A stretch of DNA of 64,000 nucleotides, from the NCBI GenBank assembly GCA_019359695.1, contig JAHHGV010000028.1, positions 1-64,000 of the forward strand, in the 5' to 3' direction. Position numbers and translations under genes: made by a program. Numbering within the stretch: position 1 is the stretch's first letter; each line of letters begins with the position of its first letter. The notes beneath the pieces were generated by a model. It was not told the origin of the DNA. It saw only the letters and a list, made by a program, of their open reading frames with translations, and made no database searches. The stretch comes from Brasilonema angustatum HA4187-MV1. GTDB lineage: Bacteria; Cyanobacteriota; Cyanobacteriia; Cyanobacteriales; Nostocaceae. Below, one piece after another: positions 26,571 through 32,099 of the stretch.

Positions 26571-27722
26571 ATGACATTTGTATTAAGTTCTCAGAATATT
26601 TTTAATTACTTAGTTGAGCATAGACTCTGTACTCAGTTGGAGTCAGATCTGTATCAGGTTGAGCCGATAAGAGCAAAAAACTTTAACTTATTACTGACTT
26701 TGCCAGAAAGTCGGAAACTACTGATTAAGCAAGAACGACACAATAAAGAAGGCAAAACACTGGGCGAGTTTTTGAGTGAATGGCGAATTCAAGAGTTTTT
26801 ACAAACATTTCCAGAACTTAGTTACCTTCGATCTTGGATGCCGGAGGCGCTTCATTTTGAGGCTGAACATTCCATCATTGTTTTCAGCTACTTGGATGAC
26901 TATCGGGATTTAGCAGATTTCTACGAGAAGGAGAATGTTTTCCCAACTCAAATTGGCGAGGCGATCGCCACCATTCTCGCCACCATCCATCGAGCCACTT
27001 TCAACCGCCAAGAGTATCAGGAATTCTTCTCGGCAAAACCTAATAATCTCAGCCCTGCTCATGTGCCTAACTGGGTTCGTAGTATAGAACGGATAGGACC
27101 AGAAATTTTTGGTATAGTTCCTGCAGATGGGCTGAAATTCTTTAAGCTTTATCAGCGATACGAAAGCTTAGGGCAAGCAATCAGAGAACTTGCCGATGTT
27201 TTCCAACCCTGTTGCCTGACTCACAATGATCTCAAACTCAACAACATTCTCCTACACAATAATTGGGAGCAAGAATGGGAGCAAGAAAGTCCCAACATTG
27301 TACGGCTGATTGATTGGGAGCGCTCTTGTTGGGGAGATCCTGCTTTTGATTTGGGAACGCTGATTGCCAGCTACCTGCAAATCTGGCTGAGTAGCTTAGT
27401 CATTAGTAAGTCTTTGACTATCGAAGAATCTCTGCGTCTGGCTATGACACCTCTAGAACAGCTTCAACCTTCCATTGCTGCTCTGACTAGCGCTTATTTC
27501 GATAACTTCCCGGAGATTTTAGAGCATCGCCCCAATTTTTTGCTGCGAGTCGTGCAATTTGCTGGTTTGGCATTAATTCAACAGATTCAGGCAATGATTC
27601 AGTACCAAAAATCCTTTGGCAATAAAGGGATTTGCATGCTTCAAGTTGCCAAGAGTTTGTTATGTCGTCCGGAACAATCCTTGGCGACTGTTTTCGGAAC
27701 TGCAGCGACAGAACTCACTTAA
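26571..27722 (+). CDS. APH-fold kinase of a class V-like RiPP pathway (LxmK/TvaC-like)
   Basis: 383 aa of the aminoglycoside-phosphotransferase/kinase fold. Catalytic loop HNDLKLNN at 218-225 (Asp220 base, Asn225 metal ligand), then the DFG-equivalent IDWERSCWGDPAFDLG (Asp248). Upstream is the nucleotide-lobe segment KLLIKQ. An APH-like kinase next to a HopA1-family protein is the signature of class V lanthipeptide and thioamitide pathways, where the pair phosphorylates and then eliminates Ser/Thr in a precursor. A HopA1 gene lies 203 bases downstream and a candidate precursor after that. The start ATG 26571 aligns with the chosen start of the second kinase-like gene. Other APH substrates are possible if read alone. 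Confidence 0.85.
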   Translation: MTFVLSSQNIFNYLVEHRLCTQLESDLYQVEPIRAKNFNLLLTLPESRKLLIKQERHNKEGKTLGEFLSEWRIQEFLQTFPELSYLRSWMPEALHFEAEHSIIVFSYLDDYRDLADFYEKENVFPTQIGEAIATILATIHRATFNRQEYQEFFSAKPNNLSPAHVPNWVRSIERIGPEIFGIVPADGLKFFKLYQRYESLGQAIRELADVFQPCCLTHNDLKLNNILLHNNWEQEWEQESPNIVRLIDWERSCWGDPAFDLGTLIASYLQIWLSSLVISKSLTIEESLRLAMTPLEQLQPSIAALTSAYFDNFPEILEHRPNFLLRVVQFAGLALIQQIQAMIQYQKSFGNKGICMLQVAKSLLCRPEQSLATVFGTAATELT

Positions 27723-27769
27723 TTAGGGAGTATCTCAAATGTGTAATTTATATCAAACCCAGGTTATGA

Positions 27770-27873
27770 ATTGTCATTGCGAGCGGAACAGAGTGGAGCG
27801 AAGCAATCGCAAGGGCTGGGATTGCTTCGCTTCGTTCGCAATGACTGGGATTGCTTCGCTTCGCTCGCAATGA
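27770..27873. repeat. dispersed gattgcttcgcttcg repeat
   Basis: Two to three copies of the palindromic unit (cattgcgagcg... / ...ggattgcttcgcttcg, then cgcaatgac) fill the space between the kinase and the HopA1 gene. Common intergenic repeat type; no coding role. Confidence 0.75.
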
Positions 27874-27925
27874 CTGTACACATTTTGTTCATCTACTTAT
27901 TGATGTTTAATCGCGACGAAACTAT

Positions 27926-29047
27926 ATGCAACTAGAAAATTCTTCTCAAACTCAACAGCCGGATTCTGCTTCACAACAGCTACTCGATACTTTGCAAGAT
28001 ATCGTCAGCAATGTGCAAATCCACTCCAACTTCTCTATTAGCCATCCAAATTACAAACCTTTGGAATTACCAGATGAGGTTGTCGCCCGCTTCCAGCGAA
28101 TGCCTGCGGAGATTCAGAATAAGTATTTTAGCTTGCAACTGCGCTCGTTTCTCTACGGTATCTATTACAATGGCTCTATGCGAGCAGCTTTCGCACCAGA
28201 CGCCGATTTAGATAATTTGGCACTGCACCAGGACTTAGAAAATAACACCCGCCTCGGAGTAGACACAGCATTTTACGAACGGTTGCACTCGTCCAATCAA
28301 GGCAGCGGCTATTTTGACTCAGGTTGGTGTGTGGTGAGGCAAGAAAGTGATGGCACTCTTGCTGTAACCAAGAATAATTTAACTTTATACATTCAACCAG
28401 AGAAGCATCTGCAACTCGTCGAACAATCTGCCGCTGTAGGTGAGTTGGTGGCTATCCGAATGCCGAAAAATTTTGTGCAAAACGGGTTCTACATGGCAGT
28501 GAGCAATGCAGGACCACGCAGTTATACTCATCCAAACCGCCAGCCAGAAATCGTGCGAATTTACTTCAATTTCAGCCCAGAAGGTGCGGTGGCGGTTATG
28601 GACAGTCTGACGCGCGAGTTGAACTATATCTCAATTCCCTTTACCTTTAAAGTGCTATACAACCCAGGTGAATACAGGCGCTATGACTCAGGAGTCCTGT
28701 ATTTCGAGAAGAGTAACTATGAAGCTGTCCGGCAGGTGCTTGAGAGTGTCTACGCACAAACAAAAGCGCACTTTCACACAGATATCCCCTTATTCACCAA
28801 GTTTCTGGCACCAGGGTTAGGTTTAGCAGAAGAACCAGACCAAAAATTTGCAGAACAAGAAAGCTTTGGAATGAACCGCTGCCAAATTATTGCTAATGGT
28901 TTGTTGGAAGCTTGGCACTCGCTTGATAACTCCCCCCAAGGGCGGATGACTTCTATCCTCAAGCAATTCTCACAAGTGGGAATTGAATTGCTGCGTTCCT
29001 ACCTGAATGCTAACTCTGTGGACATATATACGCCGTTGAACTTATGA
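27926..29047 (+). CDS. HopA1-family protein of RiPP pathway (first copy)
   Basis: 373 aa. Conserved blocks of the HopA1 family: RMPAEIQNKYFSLQLRSFLYGIY (59-80), YFNFSPEGA (213-221), FKVLYNP (241-247), YRRYDSG (250-256), TKFLAPGLGLAE (291-302) and GMNRCQI (315-321). HopA1 was named for a Pseudomonas type III effector, but in bacterial RiPP clusters relatives act with an APH-like kinase, probably as the lyase that makes dehydroalanine or dehydrobutyrine. No signal peptide. It lies between the kinase and the precursor-like gene, all on the plus strand. A second, diverged copy is at 31005-32099. A role as effector toxin is unlikely in this context. Confidence 0.85.
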   Translation: MQLENSSQTQQPDSASQQLLDTLQDIVSNVQIHSNFSISHPNYKPLELPDEVVARFQRMPAEIQNKYFSLQLRSFLYGIYYNGSMRAAFAPDADLDNLALHQDLENNTRLGVDTAFYERLHSSNQGSGYFDSGWCVVRQESDGTLAVTKNNLTLYIQPEKHLQLVEQSAAVGELVAIRMPKNFVQNGFYMAVSNAGPRSYTHPNRQPEIVRIYFNFSPEGAVAVMDSLTRELNYISIPFTFKVLYNPGEYRRYDSGVLYFEKSNYEAVRQVLESVYAQTKAHFHTDIPLFTKFLAPGLGLAEEPDQKFAEQESFGMNRCQIIANGLLEAWHSLDNSPQGRMTSILKQFSQVGIELLRSYLNANSVDIYTPLNL

Positions 29048-29131
29048 CGGAAATTACTCCGTATGGTATAAATACTTTGTAGAAAGGATTTGATAATAGT
29101 AATTAAGAACACATTGATTAATATTCAAATC

Positions 29132-29341
29132 ATGAAAAACACAGATACTAACATCACAAATCAGATCACAAATGATATCACAAATGATATCCCAGTGGCC
29201 GGAACTGACTTGTTTGCCGATTCTGAAGACTTCTTGAATGAACTGACTGATAGTGAATTGGTTCAAATAAACGGTGGTGCTCGTTATGAGCCCAGCAACA
29301 TAAGCCTATTGTTATGTGGTGGTGATGTACTACTGCACTAG
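29132..29341 (+). CDS. candidate RiPP precursor peptide with double-glycine leader
   Basis: 69 aa from the ATG at 29132 (the frame is open back to TTG 29090, but ATG is the plausible start; no strong ribosome site is seen). The acidic leader ends FLNELTDSELVQINGG (residues 34-49), a classic double-glycine processing site. The predicted core is ARYEPSNISLLLCGGDVLLH (50-69) with Ser55, Ser58 and a single Cys62; SLLLC could close one lanthionine-type ring after Ser dehydration. Residues 8-19 come from three tandem 12-bp units (29153-29188) coding ITNQ/ITND. It sits between two kinase-like/HopA1 pairs. No C39 peptidase or exporter is in the window. It is not similar to any named lantibiotic I know. 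Confidence 0.7.
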   Translation: MKNTDTNITNQITNDITNDIPVAGTDLFADSEDFLNELTDSELVQINGGARYEPSNISLLLCGGDVLLH

Positions 29342-29456
29342 TTGACAATACCCGTGTGACAATTTGACCACGGTAAGCCTACTGGTCTGTAAGGAATTAC
29401 CTTAATTGCTCGTCCAAAGCTTGACATTTGGAACAGAAAACTCATTTTATCTAATG

Positions 29457-29492
29457 AAATCATAGAGTGGGCTAATCTCCACTCTATGATTT
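29457..29492. terminator. perfect 14-bp stem-loop after precursor gene
   Basis: Arms aaatcatagagtgg (29457-29470) and ccactctatgattt (29479-29492) around an 8-base loop, 116 bases past the precursor stop. It probably ends or attenuates the precursor transcript so that the peptide is made in excess over downstream enzymes. An ATG at 29486 lies inside the right arm and is therefore an unlikely start for the next gene. Confidence 0.6.
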
Positions 29493-29554
29493 ATTTAATT
29501 CAACTCATCAAGTCCAGAAAACACACTCGTCTGATAAGAATAAAGAAGCTTTTT

Positions 29555-30700
29555 GTGGCTATCAAACTCAACTCTAACAACTTATTTGATTACTTAATTG
29601 ATACTGCTATATGCCAAAAAGACGACTTAGACTATCTGAAAGTTGACGTTAATAGCAAGACTTTTCATTGGCTCATCGAGTTGCCCCAAAGTCAGGGCAA
29701 ACTATTTGTTAAGCAGACACCTGATTATAGAAGTCTTGAGCACGATGTTAGGATTTCTAAAGAGTGGAAGCTTTATAATTTTTTGCAGTCTCACAAAGAT
29801 TTAGATTCTGCTTCATCATTAATTCCAGAAGTCCTGCATTTTGATGACAGCAATTCCATACTAATATACAAATGCTCAAATGATTATATTAGCTTAAAAA
29901 GTTTTTATGAAAATCAGGAAGCTTTCCCAATAGCGCTCGCAGAATTGCTAGGAACGACTTTAGCAAAGCTACATTCACAGACAATGAGTACTCAGGCGTG
30001 CTACACTTTTCTGACTGAACTGGAAGAATCTAAACTTAACTACCAACTTCCTTATCCTGATTATCTTTCTGACTATCTTGTTAGCCGAATTGAACCTGAG
30101 AGTTTAAAGAAAACTCAAGCTGTTGCTTGGAGATTTCTGGGTATTTTTCAACAATCTGAAGTTGTGAGGGAAATTGTTACAGAGTTGGTGTTGAATCATC
30201 GCCACTGCTGTTTAACACACAATAATATTCAATTTCATAAGATTTTTATACCTAGACATTGGGAGAAGTTAGTAACGGAAACTCAGGATTATGACAAAAG
30301 CCTAATTAAGATTGTTGATTGGGAAGCATGTAGTTGGGGCGATCCAGCTTGCGATTTAGGAAAAGCAATTCTTGGCTATTTTCTCTTCTGGCTCAACAGT
30401 ATGATTGTACATCCTGCTATTGAAGTCAAAAAATCTATACAGCTAGCTACAATGCCTCTAGAAGTCGTTCGTCCTTCAATTGTCGCTATGACAAAAGCTT
30501 ATATCAATACTTACCCAAAGATTTTAGAAGATTATCCGGAATTTCTCAAGCGGGTTATTCAGTTTACTGGACTTGGTTTAATTTATCAACTCCTCACAGA
30601 ATTTCAACTTCAGCCAGAGATGGCTTTAAGTCACCAAGGGCTATATTTTTTCATTGCTACACAATTTCTGTGCAAGCCTGAAAAGTTTCTGTCAATTTAA
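29555..30700 (+). CDS. degenerate APH-fold kinase (predicted pseudokinase), second RiPP copy
   Basis: 381 aa from GTG 29555, which aligns residue for residue with the start of the first kinase (AIKLNSNNLFDYL against TFVLSSQNIFNYL); an extension to ATG 29486 would begin inside a hairpin. The catalytic loop reads THNNIQFHK: the base Asp is Asn224 and the metal-binding Asn is Lys229. The later metal Asp is kept in KIVDWEACSWGDPACDLG. Such changes normally abolish phosphotransfer, so it is probably a pseudokinase that binds precursor or partner. It is followed by the second HopA1 gene, as in the first pair. Overall it is clearly homologous to the 26.6-kb kinase but diverged. Confidence 0.8.
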   Translation: MAIKLNSNNLFDYLIDTAICQKDDLDYLKVDVNSKTFHWLIELPQSQGKLFVKQTPDYRSLEHDVRISKEWKLYNFLQSHKDLDSASSLIPEVLHFDDSNSILIYKCSNDYISLKSFYENQEAFPIALAELLGTTLAKLHSQTMSTQACYTFLTELEESKLNYQLPYPDYLSDYLVSRIEPESLKKTQAVAWRFLGIFQQSEVVREIVTELVLNHRHCCLTHNNIQFHKIFIPRHWEKLVTETQDYDKSLIKIVDWEACSWGDPACDLGKAILGYFLFWLNSMIVHPAIEVKKSIQLATMPLEVVRPSIVAMTKAYINTYPKILEDYPEFLKRVIQFTGLGLIYQLLTEFQLQPEMALSHQGLYFFIATQFLCKPEKFLSI

Positions 30701-30701
30701 C

Positions 30702-30927
30702 GGGAGCATTCCAATTTTGCACAGACACCTGGCGAATAGAATTCGCGGCTACACAGGCAAAGTCCGCCTACGCGGACTAATTACAGCCTGCGGAGGCAGG
30801 CTTTGTTTGTATAGCCGAGCCAGTGCGTTGGACGGGTTTCCCGGCTTGAAGCACCTGGCGTCCAGACTTCCAGTCTGTTAGCGAAGCGGCACGAAGTGCG
30901 GGCATTTTGCACATTTGGGATGCTCCC
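30702..30927. repeat. 226-bp palindromic MITE-like element
   Basis: Imperfect ~20-bp terminal inverted repeats (gggagcattccaattttgca at 30702-30721; right arm 30908-30927). Internal hairpins include agtccgcctacgcggact and agcctgcggaggcaggct. Positions 30817-30861 match a second copy at 44237-44281. It fills the gap 30701-31004 between the second kinase-like gene and the second HopA1 gene, where no ORF is supported. Confidence 0.7.
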
Positions 30928-31004
30928 ACTACTGTCTTTTTTGCCAAATTGAAAAACTCCCTGATTCAATACCCTGTCAATAAAAAAATATAAGAGAATC
31001 TATC

Positions 31005-32099
31005 ATGCAATTACCACCAACTTTACAGGAGACTTTACACGATATTGCTGACAACATTCAAATAGAATTCTCCAAATTACGCATCAGTCATTCTGACTAT
31101 TCTCCTATAGAAACTCCTGCTGCTACTGTGGCACAACTGCAAAAGATGCCTCAGGAAATCCAGTATAAATATTTAAATTCTCAGTTATCCAAATTCATAT
31201 ATAGTATTTACTTTGAAGGTTCGTGTACAACAGAAGTCAGCCCAGGAATTAAGACGAACGAACAAATTCTACAAGAAATAGATTCCAGAGAAATAGACTG
31301 GGAATTTTATGAACAACTGGACGAAAACAATGATGGAAGAGGTTTTTTTCACCCAGGATACCGCATCCTTAAACAGGAAGCTGATGGTAGCCTAGCCGCA
31401 GAATTTGATACTTTCATTCAACACATCCAGCGAGAGCGTCATCTTCCTTTATCTTTGCAATCAGCTAGTGTAAACGATCCAGTAGCAGTATTGTTACCTT
31501 CTAGCTATATTCATGAAAATAGGTATAGAGCAAATGGCGATGGTATAGGTGGTTTACCGCCTATGAAATTTCACAGTGAGGGAATAGTTGTTTACTTCAA
31601 CTTCAGTCCAGAAGCTGCTGTTTGGACTATGAAATATTTAACGACAAAATTGAATGAAGTGAAAGTCCCCTTTGCTTTCGAGGTATTACACAACCCTTTG
31701 AACTACAGGTTGTATAATTCAGGATTTCTCAAGTTTCCTTATAATCCAGATGAGTCTTACCGATACAAAGAAATTCTTTTACCTGTCTTACAGACGATTT
31801 ATGCAGAAAATAAATCCCACTTTCGGGAGCAGGTTCCCATATTTACCAAGGTACTCGCACCTGGTATCGGATTAGCCGAACATCCTGCTTCTGAACTGAA
31901 GTTTGGACTTCAACAACAGTTTGGAGAAAACCGCTGCGAAATTGTTGCCAGTGCAATGCTTGAAGCTCATCAAAACGGTGATGAATCAAAAGAAGCTCGG
32001 ATGAAATATATTATCCAACATTTTGAGCGGTTGGGGCTTGACATCGAGCGTCCCTATCTCAATCCTAACTCGGAAGATATTTACACACCATTGGAGTGA
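31005..32099 (+). CDS. HopA1-family protein of RiPP pathway (second copy)
   Basis: 364 aa, homologous along its length to the first copy: KMPQEIQYKYLNSQLSKFIYSIY, VYFNFSPEA, FEVLHNP, YRLYNSG, TKVLAPGIGLAE, GENRCEI, ending NPNSEDIYTPLE (first copy NANSVDIYTPLNL). One visible difference in a conserved block is YNSG where the first copy has YDSG. A 10-residue deletion/insertion pattern in the N-terminal third suggests old divergence. It is paired with the predicted pseudokinase; the two may form a scaffold or act on a different residue. Start ATG 31005. Confidence 0.85.
   Translation: MQLPPTLQETLHDIADNIQIEFSKLRISHSDYSPIETPAATVAQLQKMPQEIQYKYLNSQLSKFIYSIYFEGSCTTEVSPGIKTNEQILQEIDSREIDWEFYEQLDENNDGRGFFHPGYRILKQEADGSLAAEFDTFIQHIQRERHLPLSLQSASVNDPVAVLLPSSYIHENRYRANGDGIGGLPPMKFHSEGIVVYFNFSPEAAVWTMKYLTTKLNEVKVPFAFEVLHNPLNYRLYNSGFLKFPYNPDESYRYKEILLPVLQTIYAENKSHFREQVPIFTKVLAPGIGLAEHPASELKFGLQQQFGENRCEIVASAMLEAHQNGDESKEARMKYIIQHFERLGLDIERPYLNPNSEDIYTPLE

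What the first reader, a model, noticed from the sequence alone, without database searches (positions are those of the whole stretch)
26571..32099. Compact class V-like RiPP locus with duplicated kinase/HopA1 pairs
Seen: APH-fold kinase, HopA1-family gene, a 69-aa peptide gene ending its leader in NGG, then a second kinase-like gene and a second HopA1 gene, all on one strand. Established: an APH-like kinase with a HopA1-family protein forms the Ser/Thr dehydration machinery of class V lanthipeptides (lexapeptide type) and thioamitides. Inference: a cyanobacterial pathway of this kind with a new core (S-N-I-S-L-L-L-C) and a doubled enzyme pair around one precursor. Duplicated pairs around a single precursor are not an arrangement I know from the characterised clusters.
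Basis: partly seen in the sequence, partly recalled or inferred. Interest (0 to 1): 0.92.

Follow-up and report, generated by a model that had tools for sequence, protein, structure and literature searches.

The report
Conserved inactive enzyme pair beside RiPP
A cyanobacterial five-gene cassette carries one apparently working pair of peptide-dehydrating enzymes and a second, look-alike pair that has lost its catalytic residues yet is kept by evolution beside a short peptide with a Ser-x-x-Ser-x-x-x-Cys motif, which suggests that the inactive pair was re-used for a later step such as closing a ring.

Summary
The five genes are real and lie where stated. Pair 1 (K, Y) keeps the catalytic residues of class V LanK/LanY. 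Pair 2 (K', Y') is no second working dehydratase: window K' lacks the catalytic Asp and Mg-binding Asn; Y' lacks the residues matching CaoY R187/K219/R229/Y236. The arrangement recurs: of 23 non-redundant K' genes (defined by the lost Asp) all have a double-Gly precursor just upstream and 18 a canonical Y; 15 loci, window included, show all five genes. K' and Y' each form one group (100/100, 100/99) and evolve under constraint (median omega 0.32, 0.28). In the window's branch 16 of 16 loci carry S-x2-S-x(2-3)-C cores, against 0 of 7 other K'Y' loci and 0 of 101 precursors at intact-only loci. That is the class III lanthionine/labionin motif. Seven of 20 K'Y' genomes show no LanC. Best reading: pair 1 dehydrates; pair 2 is a retained pseudo-dehydratase serving ring formation. 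The pseudo-enzyme status is well supported, the cyclase role inferred. The parent family and kinase-fold LanX cyclases are known; my literature listings show no pseudo-pair.

The parts
26571..27722 (+). K: LanK-type APH-fold kinase, catalytic residues present (K53, H218, D220, N225, D248)
   Evidence: D220 and N225 in 45 of 45 canonical homologues sampled out of 88
27926..29047 (+). Y: LanY/HopA1-type phospho-Ser/Thr lyase with R211, K242, R252, Y259
   Evidence: aligned to the solved lyase chain 9dk1_B, which shows the same four residues
29132..29341 (+). precursor peptide, 69 aa: double-Gly leader (ends INGG at residue 49), core ARYEPSNISLLLCGGDVLLH whose only Ser/Thr/Cys are those of the S-x2-S-x3-C motif
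   Evidence: a longer TTG start at 29090 is possible
29457..29492 (+). 15-pair hairpin followed by a T-rich stretch, between precursor and K' (attenuator-like)
   Evidence: a hairpin of -15.9 to -24.1 kcal/mol in the precursor-K' region of 9 of 9 nearest loci, while the best of 20 mononucleotide shuffles per locus was -8.5 to -12.1
29486..30700 (+). K': pseudokinase paralogue of LanK (HND to HNN; Asn225 equivalent to Lys); real start possibly GTG 29555
31005..32099 (+). Y': HopA1/LanY paralogue with replaced active site (R211, K242, R252, Y259 equivalents are V, E, L, K)

Best explanation
The locus is a minimal RiPP cassette K-Y-A-K'-Y'. Inferred from homology: the K-Y complex binds the double-Gly leader, phosphorylates the two core Ser residues and eliminates phosphate to give two Dha. 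Shown by sequence: K' and Y' are paralogues of such a pair that lack the residues for phosphorylation and elimination, and they are kept under purifying selection, as a pair, with a precursor beside them. Inferred: K'Y' is a retired dehydratase complex that still holds the peptide and now serves the step after dehydration, most likely ring closure on the Ser-x2-Ser-x(2-3)-Cys motif (lanthionine, and because two Ser stand before each Cys, perhaps a labionin-type double ring). A double-Gly exporter/peptidase then removes the leader; I saw none beside the window locus, but one lies by the genome's other K'Y' locus.
For: Catalytic residues of K/Y present, of K'/Y' absent. K' were picked by the lost Asp, so that loss is by definition; independent of it are N225 to K in 14 of 16 K' of the window's branch against N in 45 of 45 canonical K sampled out of 88, and, in the 22 Y' partners, R211 and Y259 lost in 22 of 22 and K242 in 16 of 22. 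The old Y site is replaced rather than randomised in the window's sub-branch: E242 with K259 in 10 of 11 tree rows (exception: Hyella, L037) and in two Y' outside the tree (L109, L110). Each paralogue is one side of a branch. Median omega: K' 0.318, Y' 0.282, K 0.204, Y 0.288. Precursor 87-339 bp upstream of K' in 23 of 23. S-x2-S-x(2-3)-C in 18 of 27 K'-adjacent precursors (shuffled mean 1.3; 0 of 1000 shuffles reach 18) against 0 of 101 at canonical-only loci (Fisher 1.2e-15, rows not independent); Cys in 27 of 27 against 38 of 101. The motif follows the Y' branch, not the Y branch: of the loci with K'Y', canonical-Y groups {L193, L196 with motif; L199 without} and {L114, L200 with; L119, L039 without} are mixed, Y' branches are not. 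The cassette sits in at least four chromosomal contexts. No LanC match in 7 of 20 K'Y' genomes, among them the same-genus G683 (3 contigs, 99% complete). Precedent: RosX, a kinase-fold protein without catalytic residues, is an AviMeCys cyclase, and RosK-RosY moderately speeds lanthionine closure (PMC12291118).
Against: I found no characterised product. Ring closure could be spontaneous once Dha is made (PMC12291118 shows this for one rosin ring), leaving K'Y' with another role. Motif and K'Y' may be linked only because A-K'-Y' is inherited as a unit: the motif sits on one branch of the Y' tree, so the counts are not independent. Seven K'Y' loci (outside the branch) lack the motif, though all have Cys; with Thr and longer spacing allowed the contrast is weaker (20 of 27 against 10 of 101). 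Three loci (L111, L112, L113) have no K/Y within about 6.8 kb upstream. Window K' keeps the ATP-site Lys and Asp248, and 6 of 22 Y' keep the Lys. Y'-like fragments, some with stops, exist in other genomes (G178, G160, G185; not fetched), so the pair is sometimes lost. 13 of 20 genomes do encode a LanC-like protein. No fold model could be made.
Confidence: 0.5

Rival explanations
1. K'Y' is a non-catalytic partner (leader-binding scaffold, processivity or solubility factor, or allosteric regulator) of the working K-Y complex; rings close spontaneously or under K-Y.
For: Loss of catalytic residues with constraint; LanK and LanY work as a complex (PMC9486802), and one lanthionine ring of rosin closes without a cyclase (PMC12291118).
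Against: It does not by itself explain why Cys (27 of 27) and the S-x2-S-x(2-3)-C motif (16 of 16 loci of the branch) go with K'Y' while precursors at intact-only loci have the motif in 0 of 101.
Confidence: 0.3
2. K'Y' is still an active but atypical second dehydratase, dividing the two Ser sites with pair 1.
For: ATP-site Lys and the metal-binding Asp248 equivalent are kept in window K'; 6 of 22 Y' keep the Lys.
Against: The catalytic Asp is N, T or G in the 23 K' (that it is not Asp is how they were chosen); the ATP-site Lys region is missing in two (L038, L116); R211 and Y259 are lost in 22 of 22 Y'. CaoY K219A lost elimination and R187A nearly so (PMC9486802).
Confidence: 0.08
3. K'Y' is a regulator, immunity or sensor pair unrelated to ring chemistry.
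For: Pseudokinases often act in signalling (general knowledge, no call); a hairpin before K' suggests separate dosing.
Against: Tied to precursor position and core motif.
Confidence: 0.07
4. K'Y' is a decaying duplicate.
For: Catalytic residues lost; Y'-like fragments in G178, G160 and G185 show that decay happens in some genomes.
Against: Median omega about 0.3 over 36 K' and 28 Y' pairs; full-length frames (300 aa or more was the selection rule) in 23 K' and 22 Y' loci, down to under 50% identity.
Confidence: 0.03

Closest known systems
Cyanobacterial HopA1/phosphotransferase RiPP loci with Family 1A precursors (PMC8153245) = 'type-B' class V precursors (PMC9486802)
   Same: kinase plus HopA1 pair, double-Gly leader, variable core; 570 peptides in 183 clusters were reported
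   Different: [quoted passage not shown] here the branch with K'Y' has a conserved S-x2-S-x(2-3)-C
Class Va lanthipeptides (lexapeptide, cacaoidin, rosin): LanK, LanY, LanX, LanD
   Same: LanK/LanY dehydratase; an inactive kinase-fold protein (LanX; RosX) that acts as a cyclase
   Different: no LanD among the neighbours scanned; K' is a LanK paralogue with a matching altered LanY partner; in 8 of 10 precursors of the nine nearest loci the motif Cys is not the last residue (in 7 of these by a single residue), so AviCys would need trimming
Class III lanthipeptides with labionin (LanKC)
   Same: core motif SxxSxxxC, sometimes twice (PMC13380574; labionin mostly from LanKC, PMC10604976; passages)
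   Different: no LanKC in the cassette; dehydratase of class V type
Class Vb lanthipeptides (LanK, LanY, LanC; as described in PMC12291118)
   Same: LanK/LanY dehydratase and Cys-containing core
   Different: no LanC in the cassette, no LanC match in the genome in 7 of 20

Membership tests
Class V lanthipeptide pathway | stand-alone LanK (APH) and LanY (HopA1) with active-site residues | tested here: met
   pair 1: (the LxmK model matches below its curated cut-off)
Class V lanthipeptide pathway | precursor with leader and Ser/Thr plus Cys core | tested here: met
Class V lanthipeptide pathway | (methyl)lanthionine in the product | not testable with these tools
   needs chemistry
Class Va | LanD flavoprotein cysteine decarboxylase in the cluster | tested here: not met
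   none among the five neighbour genes scanned; 32350-32940 matches FMN_red and flavodoxin families. The rest of the genome was not searched for LanD
LanX kinase-fold cyclase | kinase fold without catalytic residues | tested here: inconclusive
   K' matches APH and LxmK models and lacks the Asp220 and Asn225 equivalents, but keeps the ATP-site Lys and Asp248 in the window; the fold was not modelled
LanX kinase-fold cyclase | E220/H269/D272 of RosX | not tested
   no RosX or LxmX sequence was at hand
LanX kinase-fold cyclase | lineage far from LanK (about 17% identity of RosX to LxmK, PMC12291118) | tested here: not met
   K' still matches the LxmK model (9.6e-17) and aligns over its length with cyanobacterial LanK
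Class III / labionin | S-x2-S-x3-C core motif | tested here: met
   14 copies in the nine nearest loci; 13 copies with spacing x2 in the other seven loci of the branch
Class III / labionin | LanKC enzyme | tested here: not met
   the cassette holds only K, Y, K', Y'; the genome was searched for LanC-like domains, not for LanKC as such
Cyanobacterial Family 1A / type-B precursors | conserved double-Gly leader beside kinase/HopA1 | tested here: met
   leader HMM finds peptides in 32 of 41 HopA1 stretches; window peptide E = 4.2e-14 (it was also a seed)
Class Vb | LanC cyclase | tested here: not met
   none in the cassette; no PF05147 match in 7 of 20 K'Y' genomes, but 2 matches elsewhere in the window's own genome

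The most novel reading that the evidence does not exclude
K'Y' is a new type of labionin/lanthionine cyclase: a complete kinase-lyase dehydratase complex that lost both activities and was turned into the ring-forming enzyme for S-x2-S-x(2-3)-C cores, giving class V-type labionin peptides made without LanC, LanKC, LanX or LanD.
Probability: 0.3. Interest if true: 0.88.

Novelty: new variant of a known kind. Interest (0 to 1): 0.74.

Why it matters
How class V-type pathways without LanC close their rings is partly open, and PMC10604976 states that almost all labionin-linked lanthipeptides come from class III LanKC. A conserved pair of pseudo-enzymes tied to a labionin motif makes this testable with four genes and one peptide, and would show that both halves of an enzyme complex can lose their activity together and take on a new job. 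It also gives a genome-mining handle: an HNN kinase plus altered HopA1 protein next to a double-Gly precursor.

Tried and rejected
Rejected: two equivalent dehydratases (active sites); decaying duplicates as the general case (omega; but fragments exist in G178, G160, G185); a unique oddity of this genome; LanC as a general requirement (no match in 7 of 20 genomes; 13 of 20 do have one, so it is not excluded where present; most of the 20 are drafts, and G636 is only 87% complete).

Led nowhere: a first regular-expression scan for double-Gly precursors found almost none and was replaced by a leader HMM. Two fold predictions (A5, A6) failed. The solved-structure search with the K profile did not reach LxmK; K' gave only weak kinase matches and Y' only a weak match to 9dk1_B (E = 0.1).

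Rows dropped before counts: K or Y frames under 300 aa were left out of the trees (e.g. L046, L205, the split Y of L108/L186); identical proteins and identical peptides were counted once; trees hold all K'/Y' but only 62 canonical rows each (of 88 K and 90 Y); Y' without a neighbouring K' on the contig (L109/L192, L110) are not among the 22; the residue table used 45 canonical rows; precursors were found by a leader HMM, so peptides with other leaders are not counted; a K'Y' pair beyond a fetched stretch or contig end would make a locus look 'canonical-only'. Loci were chosen by similarity to Y' or K', not at random.

Full report
Observation. The window holds, on the + strand, an APH-fold kinase (K, 26571-27722), a HopA1-family protein (Y, 27926-29047), a 69-aa peptide (29132-29341), a second kinase-like gene (K', 29486-30700) and a second HopA1 gene (Y', 31005-32099). 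Pfam and NCBIfam support all four enzymes: HopA1 7e-60 and 1.4e-40; APH 1.2e-11 and 1.2e-5; LxmK model 2.1e-23 and 9.6e-17, both under its curated cut-off. The peptide has a double-Gly leader ending LVQINGG and the core ARYEPSNISLLLCGGDVLLH; the only Ser, Thr and Cys of the core are S55, S58 and C62.

Active sites. PMC9486802 (parts 1-3 of 5 read) reports that CaoY K219A loses elimination, R187A nearly so, R229Q works poorly, and that Y236 matches a conserved catalytic Tyr. The spacing K, R at +10, Y at +17 is found exactly in window Y (K242, R252, Y259, with R211 upstream), and the solved lyase chain 9dk1_B (E = 6.8e-10 with the Y profile) shows the same four residues. PMC12291118 (parts 1-4 of 6 read) gives entry 9DK3 for the kinase LxmK and names its Asp221 (catalysis), Asp241 and Gln226 (Mg) and Lys66 (ATP); I map these to window K D220, D248, N225 and K53 by motif, not by a computed alignment. 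K and Y keep these. K' has N for D220 and K for N225; Y' has V, E, L and K for R211, K242, R252 and Y259. So pair 2 should neither phosphorylate nor eliminate.

Recurrence. A protein search in 195 genomes of the order gave 56 genomes with HopA1 relatives; further, overlapping searches covered 386, 388 and 217 genomes, and 31 named loci came from one scan. I examined 112 stretches: the window and loci L036-L075, L106-L136, L186-L225, chosen mainly by similarity to Y' or K'. Among 111 non-redundant K proteins of 300 aa or more, 23 lack the catalytic Asp, which is how I define K'; 22 have a Y' on the contig. All 23 have a leader-HMM precursor 87-339 bp upstream; 18 have a canonical Y upstream on the same strand (in L108 it is split into two frames), and 16 of these also the canonical K; one of these, L204, ends before Y', so 15 loci show all five genes. 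Of the other five, two (L037, L038) end at a contig edge within 600 bp and three (L111, L112, L113) show none in about 6.8 kb, although for the third a K-Y pair lies further upstream (L193). Records named include Brasilonema, Scytonema, Nostoc, Moorena, Mastigocoleus, Roholtiella and Hyella. The window's genome belongs to the genus of G686, whose contig length equals that of the Brasilonema sp. CT11 record (inference). It has a second K'Y' locus (L038) whose contig ends at precursors nearly identical to those at the edge of another contig with an intact pair (L053).

Evolution. In the Y tree (84 rows) the 22 Y' fall on one side of a branch (100/99), in the K tree (85 rows) the 23 K' do so (100/100; without four long rows 99 by SH-aLRT alone). 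Trees are unrooted and several rows are long. Pairwise dN/dS over the nine nearest loci (eight or nine per gene): K' median 0.318 (36 pairs), Y' 0.282 (28), K 0.204 (28), Y 0.288 (28). These are ordinary values for proteins in use. In the 11-row branch of Y' that holds the window, 10 rows have E at 242 and K at 259; Hyella (L037) has K and Q; two Y' outside the tree (L109, L110) also have E and K. K' and Y' gained nearly invariant residues of their own, such as Y' H116 and D135 (15 of 15 each) and K' Y190, Y197, K209 (16 of 16 each). Flanks differ: window, L188 and L191 share theirs, L187 and L190 share others, L186 and L189 others again, and L036 has its own, so the genes behave as one unit. 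Against this, Y'-like fragments, some with stops, were listed in G178, G160 and G185 and not fetched.

The core. Precursors next to K' have S-x2-S-x(2-3)-C in 18 of 27 cases and Cys in 27 of 27; precursors at canonical-only loci 0 of 101 and 38 of 101; of 16 further precursors that lie at K'Y' loci but away from K', 1 has the motif. With Ser or Thr and spacing 2-5 the numbers are 20 of 27, 10 of 101 and 5 of 16. On the Y' tree the 15 rows of the window's branch, plus L204 by its K', have the motif at the precursor next to K'; the other seven loci do not. The working Y partners do not sort this way, so the motif goes with K'Y'. In the nine nearest loci there are 14 copies; Ser1, Ser4 and Cys8 are invariant and position 3 is Leu or Ile in 13 of 14, while the rest of the core varies in length and sequence; four loci have two copies in one peptide and one has two precursors. 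In PMC13380574 (passages) SXXSXXXC is the Lab/Lan motif of class III cores, and PMC10604976 (passages) says that almost all labionin-linked lanthipeptides come from class III enzymes.

A control signal. A strong hairpin lies between precursor and K' in 9 of 9 nearest loci, -15.9 to -24.1 kcal/mol, against -8.5 to -12.1 for the best of 20 mononucleotide shuffles per locus; in the window it is followed by T-rich sequence. With a T-tail rule a hairpin below -15 kcal/mol was found in 5 of these 9. This would fit more precursor than K'Y' message; it is not a test of it.

Export. Eight K'Y' loci shown (L193, L196, L197, L199, L200, L209, L216, L115; the listing was cut) have, convergent and downstream of Y', genes alike to a PPIase, an HlyD protein and a C39-peptidase ABC exporter; Pfam confirms the PPIase and C39 ABC families in L038 and L196 and HlyD in L038. 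I saw none beside the window cassette in the scanned neighbours, so the exporter by L038 may serve both (inference).

Mechanism and rivals. K-Y should make two Dha. K'Y' then most likely helps the Cys close on Dha, perhaps followed by carbon-carbon closure to labionin. Precedents: RosX is a cyclase without kinase residues and RosK-RosY moderately speeds lanthionine closure (PMC12291118); KinH, an inactive kinase homologue, is needed with KinI for the kintamdin rings (PMC9415263, passages). LanC has no match in 7 of 20 K'Y' genomes and a match in 13. Against: closure may be spontaneous, the motif sits on one branch, the other K'Y' loci lack it, and nothing was tested biochemically.

Novelty. 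The parent family is known (PMC8153245, section 16 and passages; PMC9486802). My literature searches (HopA1, lanthipeptide, cyanobacteria, phosphotransferase, RiPP, class V, cyclase, labionin, pseudokinase, LanY) show, in the listed titles and abstract starts, no report of inactive LanK/LanY pairs or of labionin in a class V-type cluster; most listed papers were not opened, the held library is partial and supplements were not read, so this is not proof of absence. I file it as a new variant of a known kind.

Noticed in passing
L052, L063, L070, L072, L122-L136 (own genome: contig C75, L002/L052): A second kinase/HopA1 group has Gln in place of the lyase Lys in 19 of 19 rows (at least two rows, L072 and L126, look like one record), a kinase that keeps HND (L133 lacks the ATP-site Lys, L063 and L135 have Asn for Asp248), and no leader-HMM precursor in the fetched stretch; in L002 the neighbours look by eye like a DHNA-CoA thioesterase and an AMP-binding ligase. 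A conserved non-canonical pair without an obvious peptide.
   Followed up: partly
L044, L060, L061, L064, L074: Further HopA1 proteins beside kinases that keep HND have altered active sites (WKCC, NKRC, EKCQ, SKRC, KRRD at the four positions), so lyase divergence without kinase loss also occurs.
   Followed up: no
L038 5443-7455, L216 4757-6769: A ThiF-family gene (339 aa) and a luciferase-like oxidoreductase (309 aa) follow Y' in the second K'Y' locus of the window's genome, and alike genes follow it in a same-genus genome.
   Followed up: partly
L108 / L186, Y gene: The canonical Y is split into two frames (147 and 226 aa) in Nostoc sp. CHAB 5824 while K, precursor, K' and Y' are open; decay or a sequencing error.
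   Followed up: no
window 27723-27925 and 30701-31004: The K-Y gap and the K'-Y' gap hold repeat-like stretches (seen by eye, not analysed); the K'-Y' gap is about 55-57 bp in L107, L108 and L036 but over 300 bp in the window, L106 and L191, so it looks like an insertion in the window's lineage.
   Followed up: no
L119, L120, L197: Mastigocoleus testarum has the K-Y-A-K'-Y' locus on two contigs that differ in the number of identical precursor copies (three and two), which may be tandem-array variation or an assembly effect.
   Followed up: no
G178:C166:4611-4922, G160:C1:3979949-3980203, G185:C2:78238-78486: C-terminal Y'-like fragments (54-58% identity to window Y' over 85-106 residues, two with a stop) hint at decayed copies in other genomes.
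   Followed up: no
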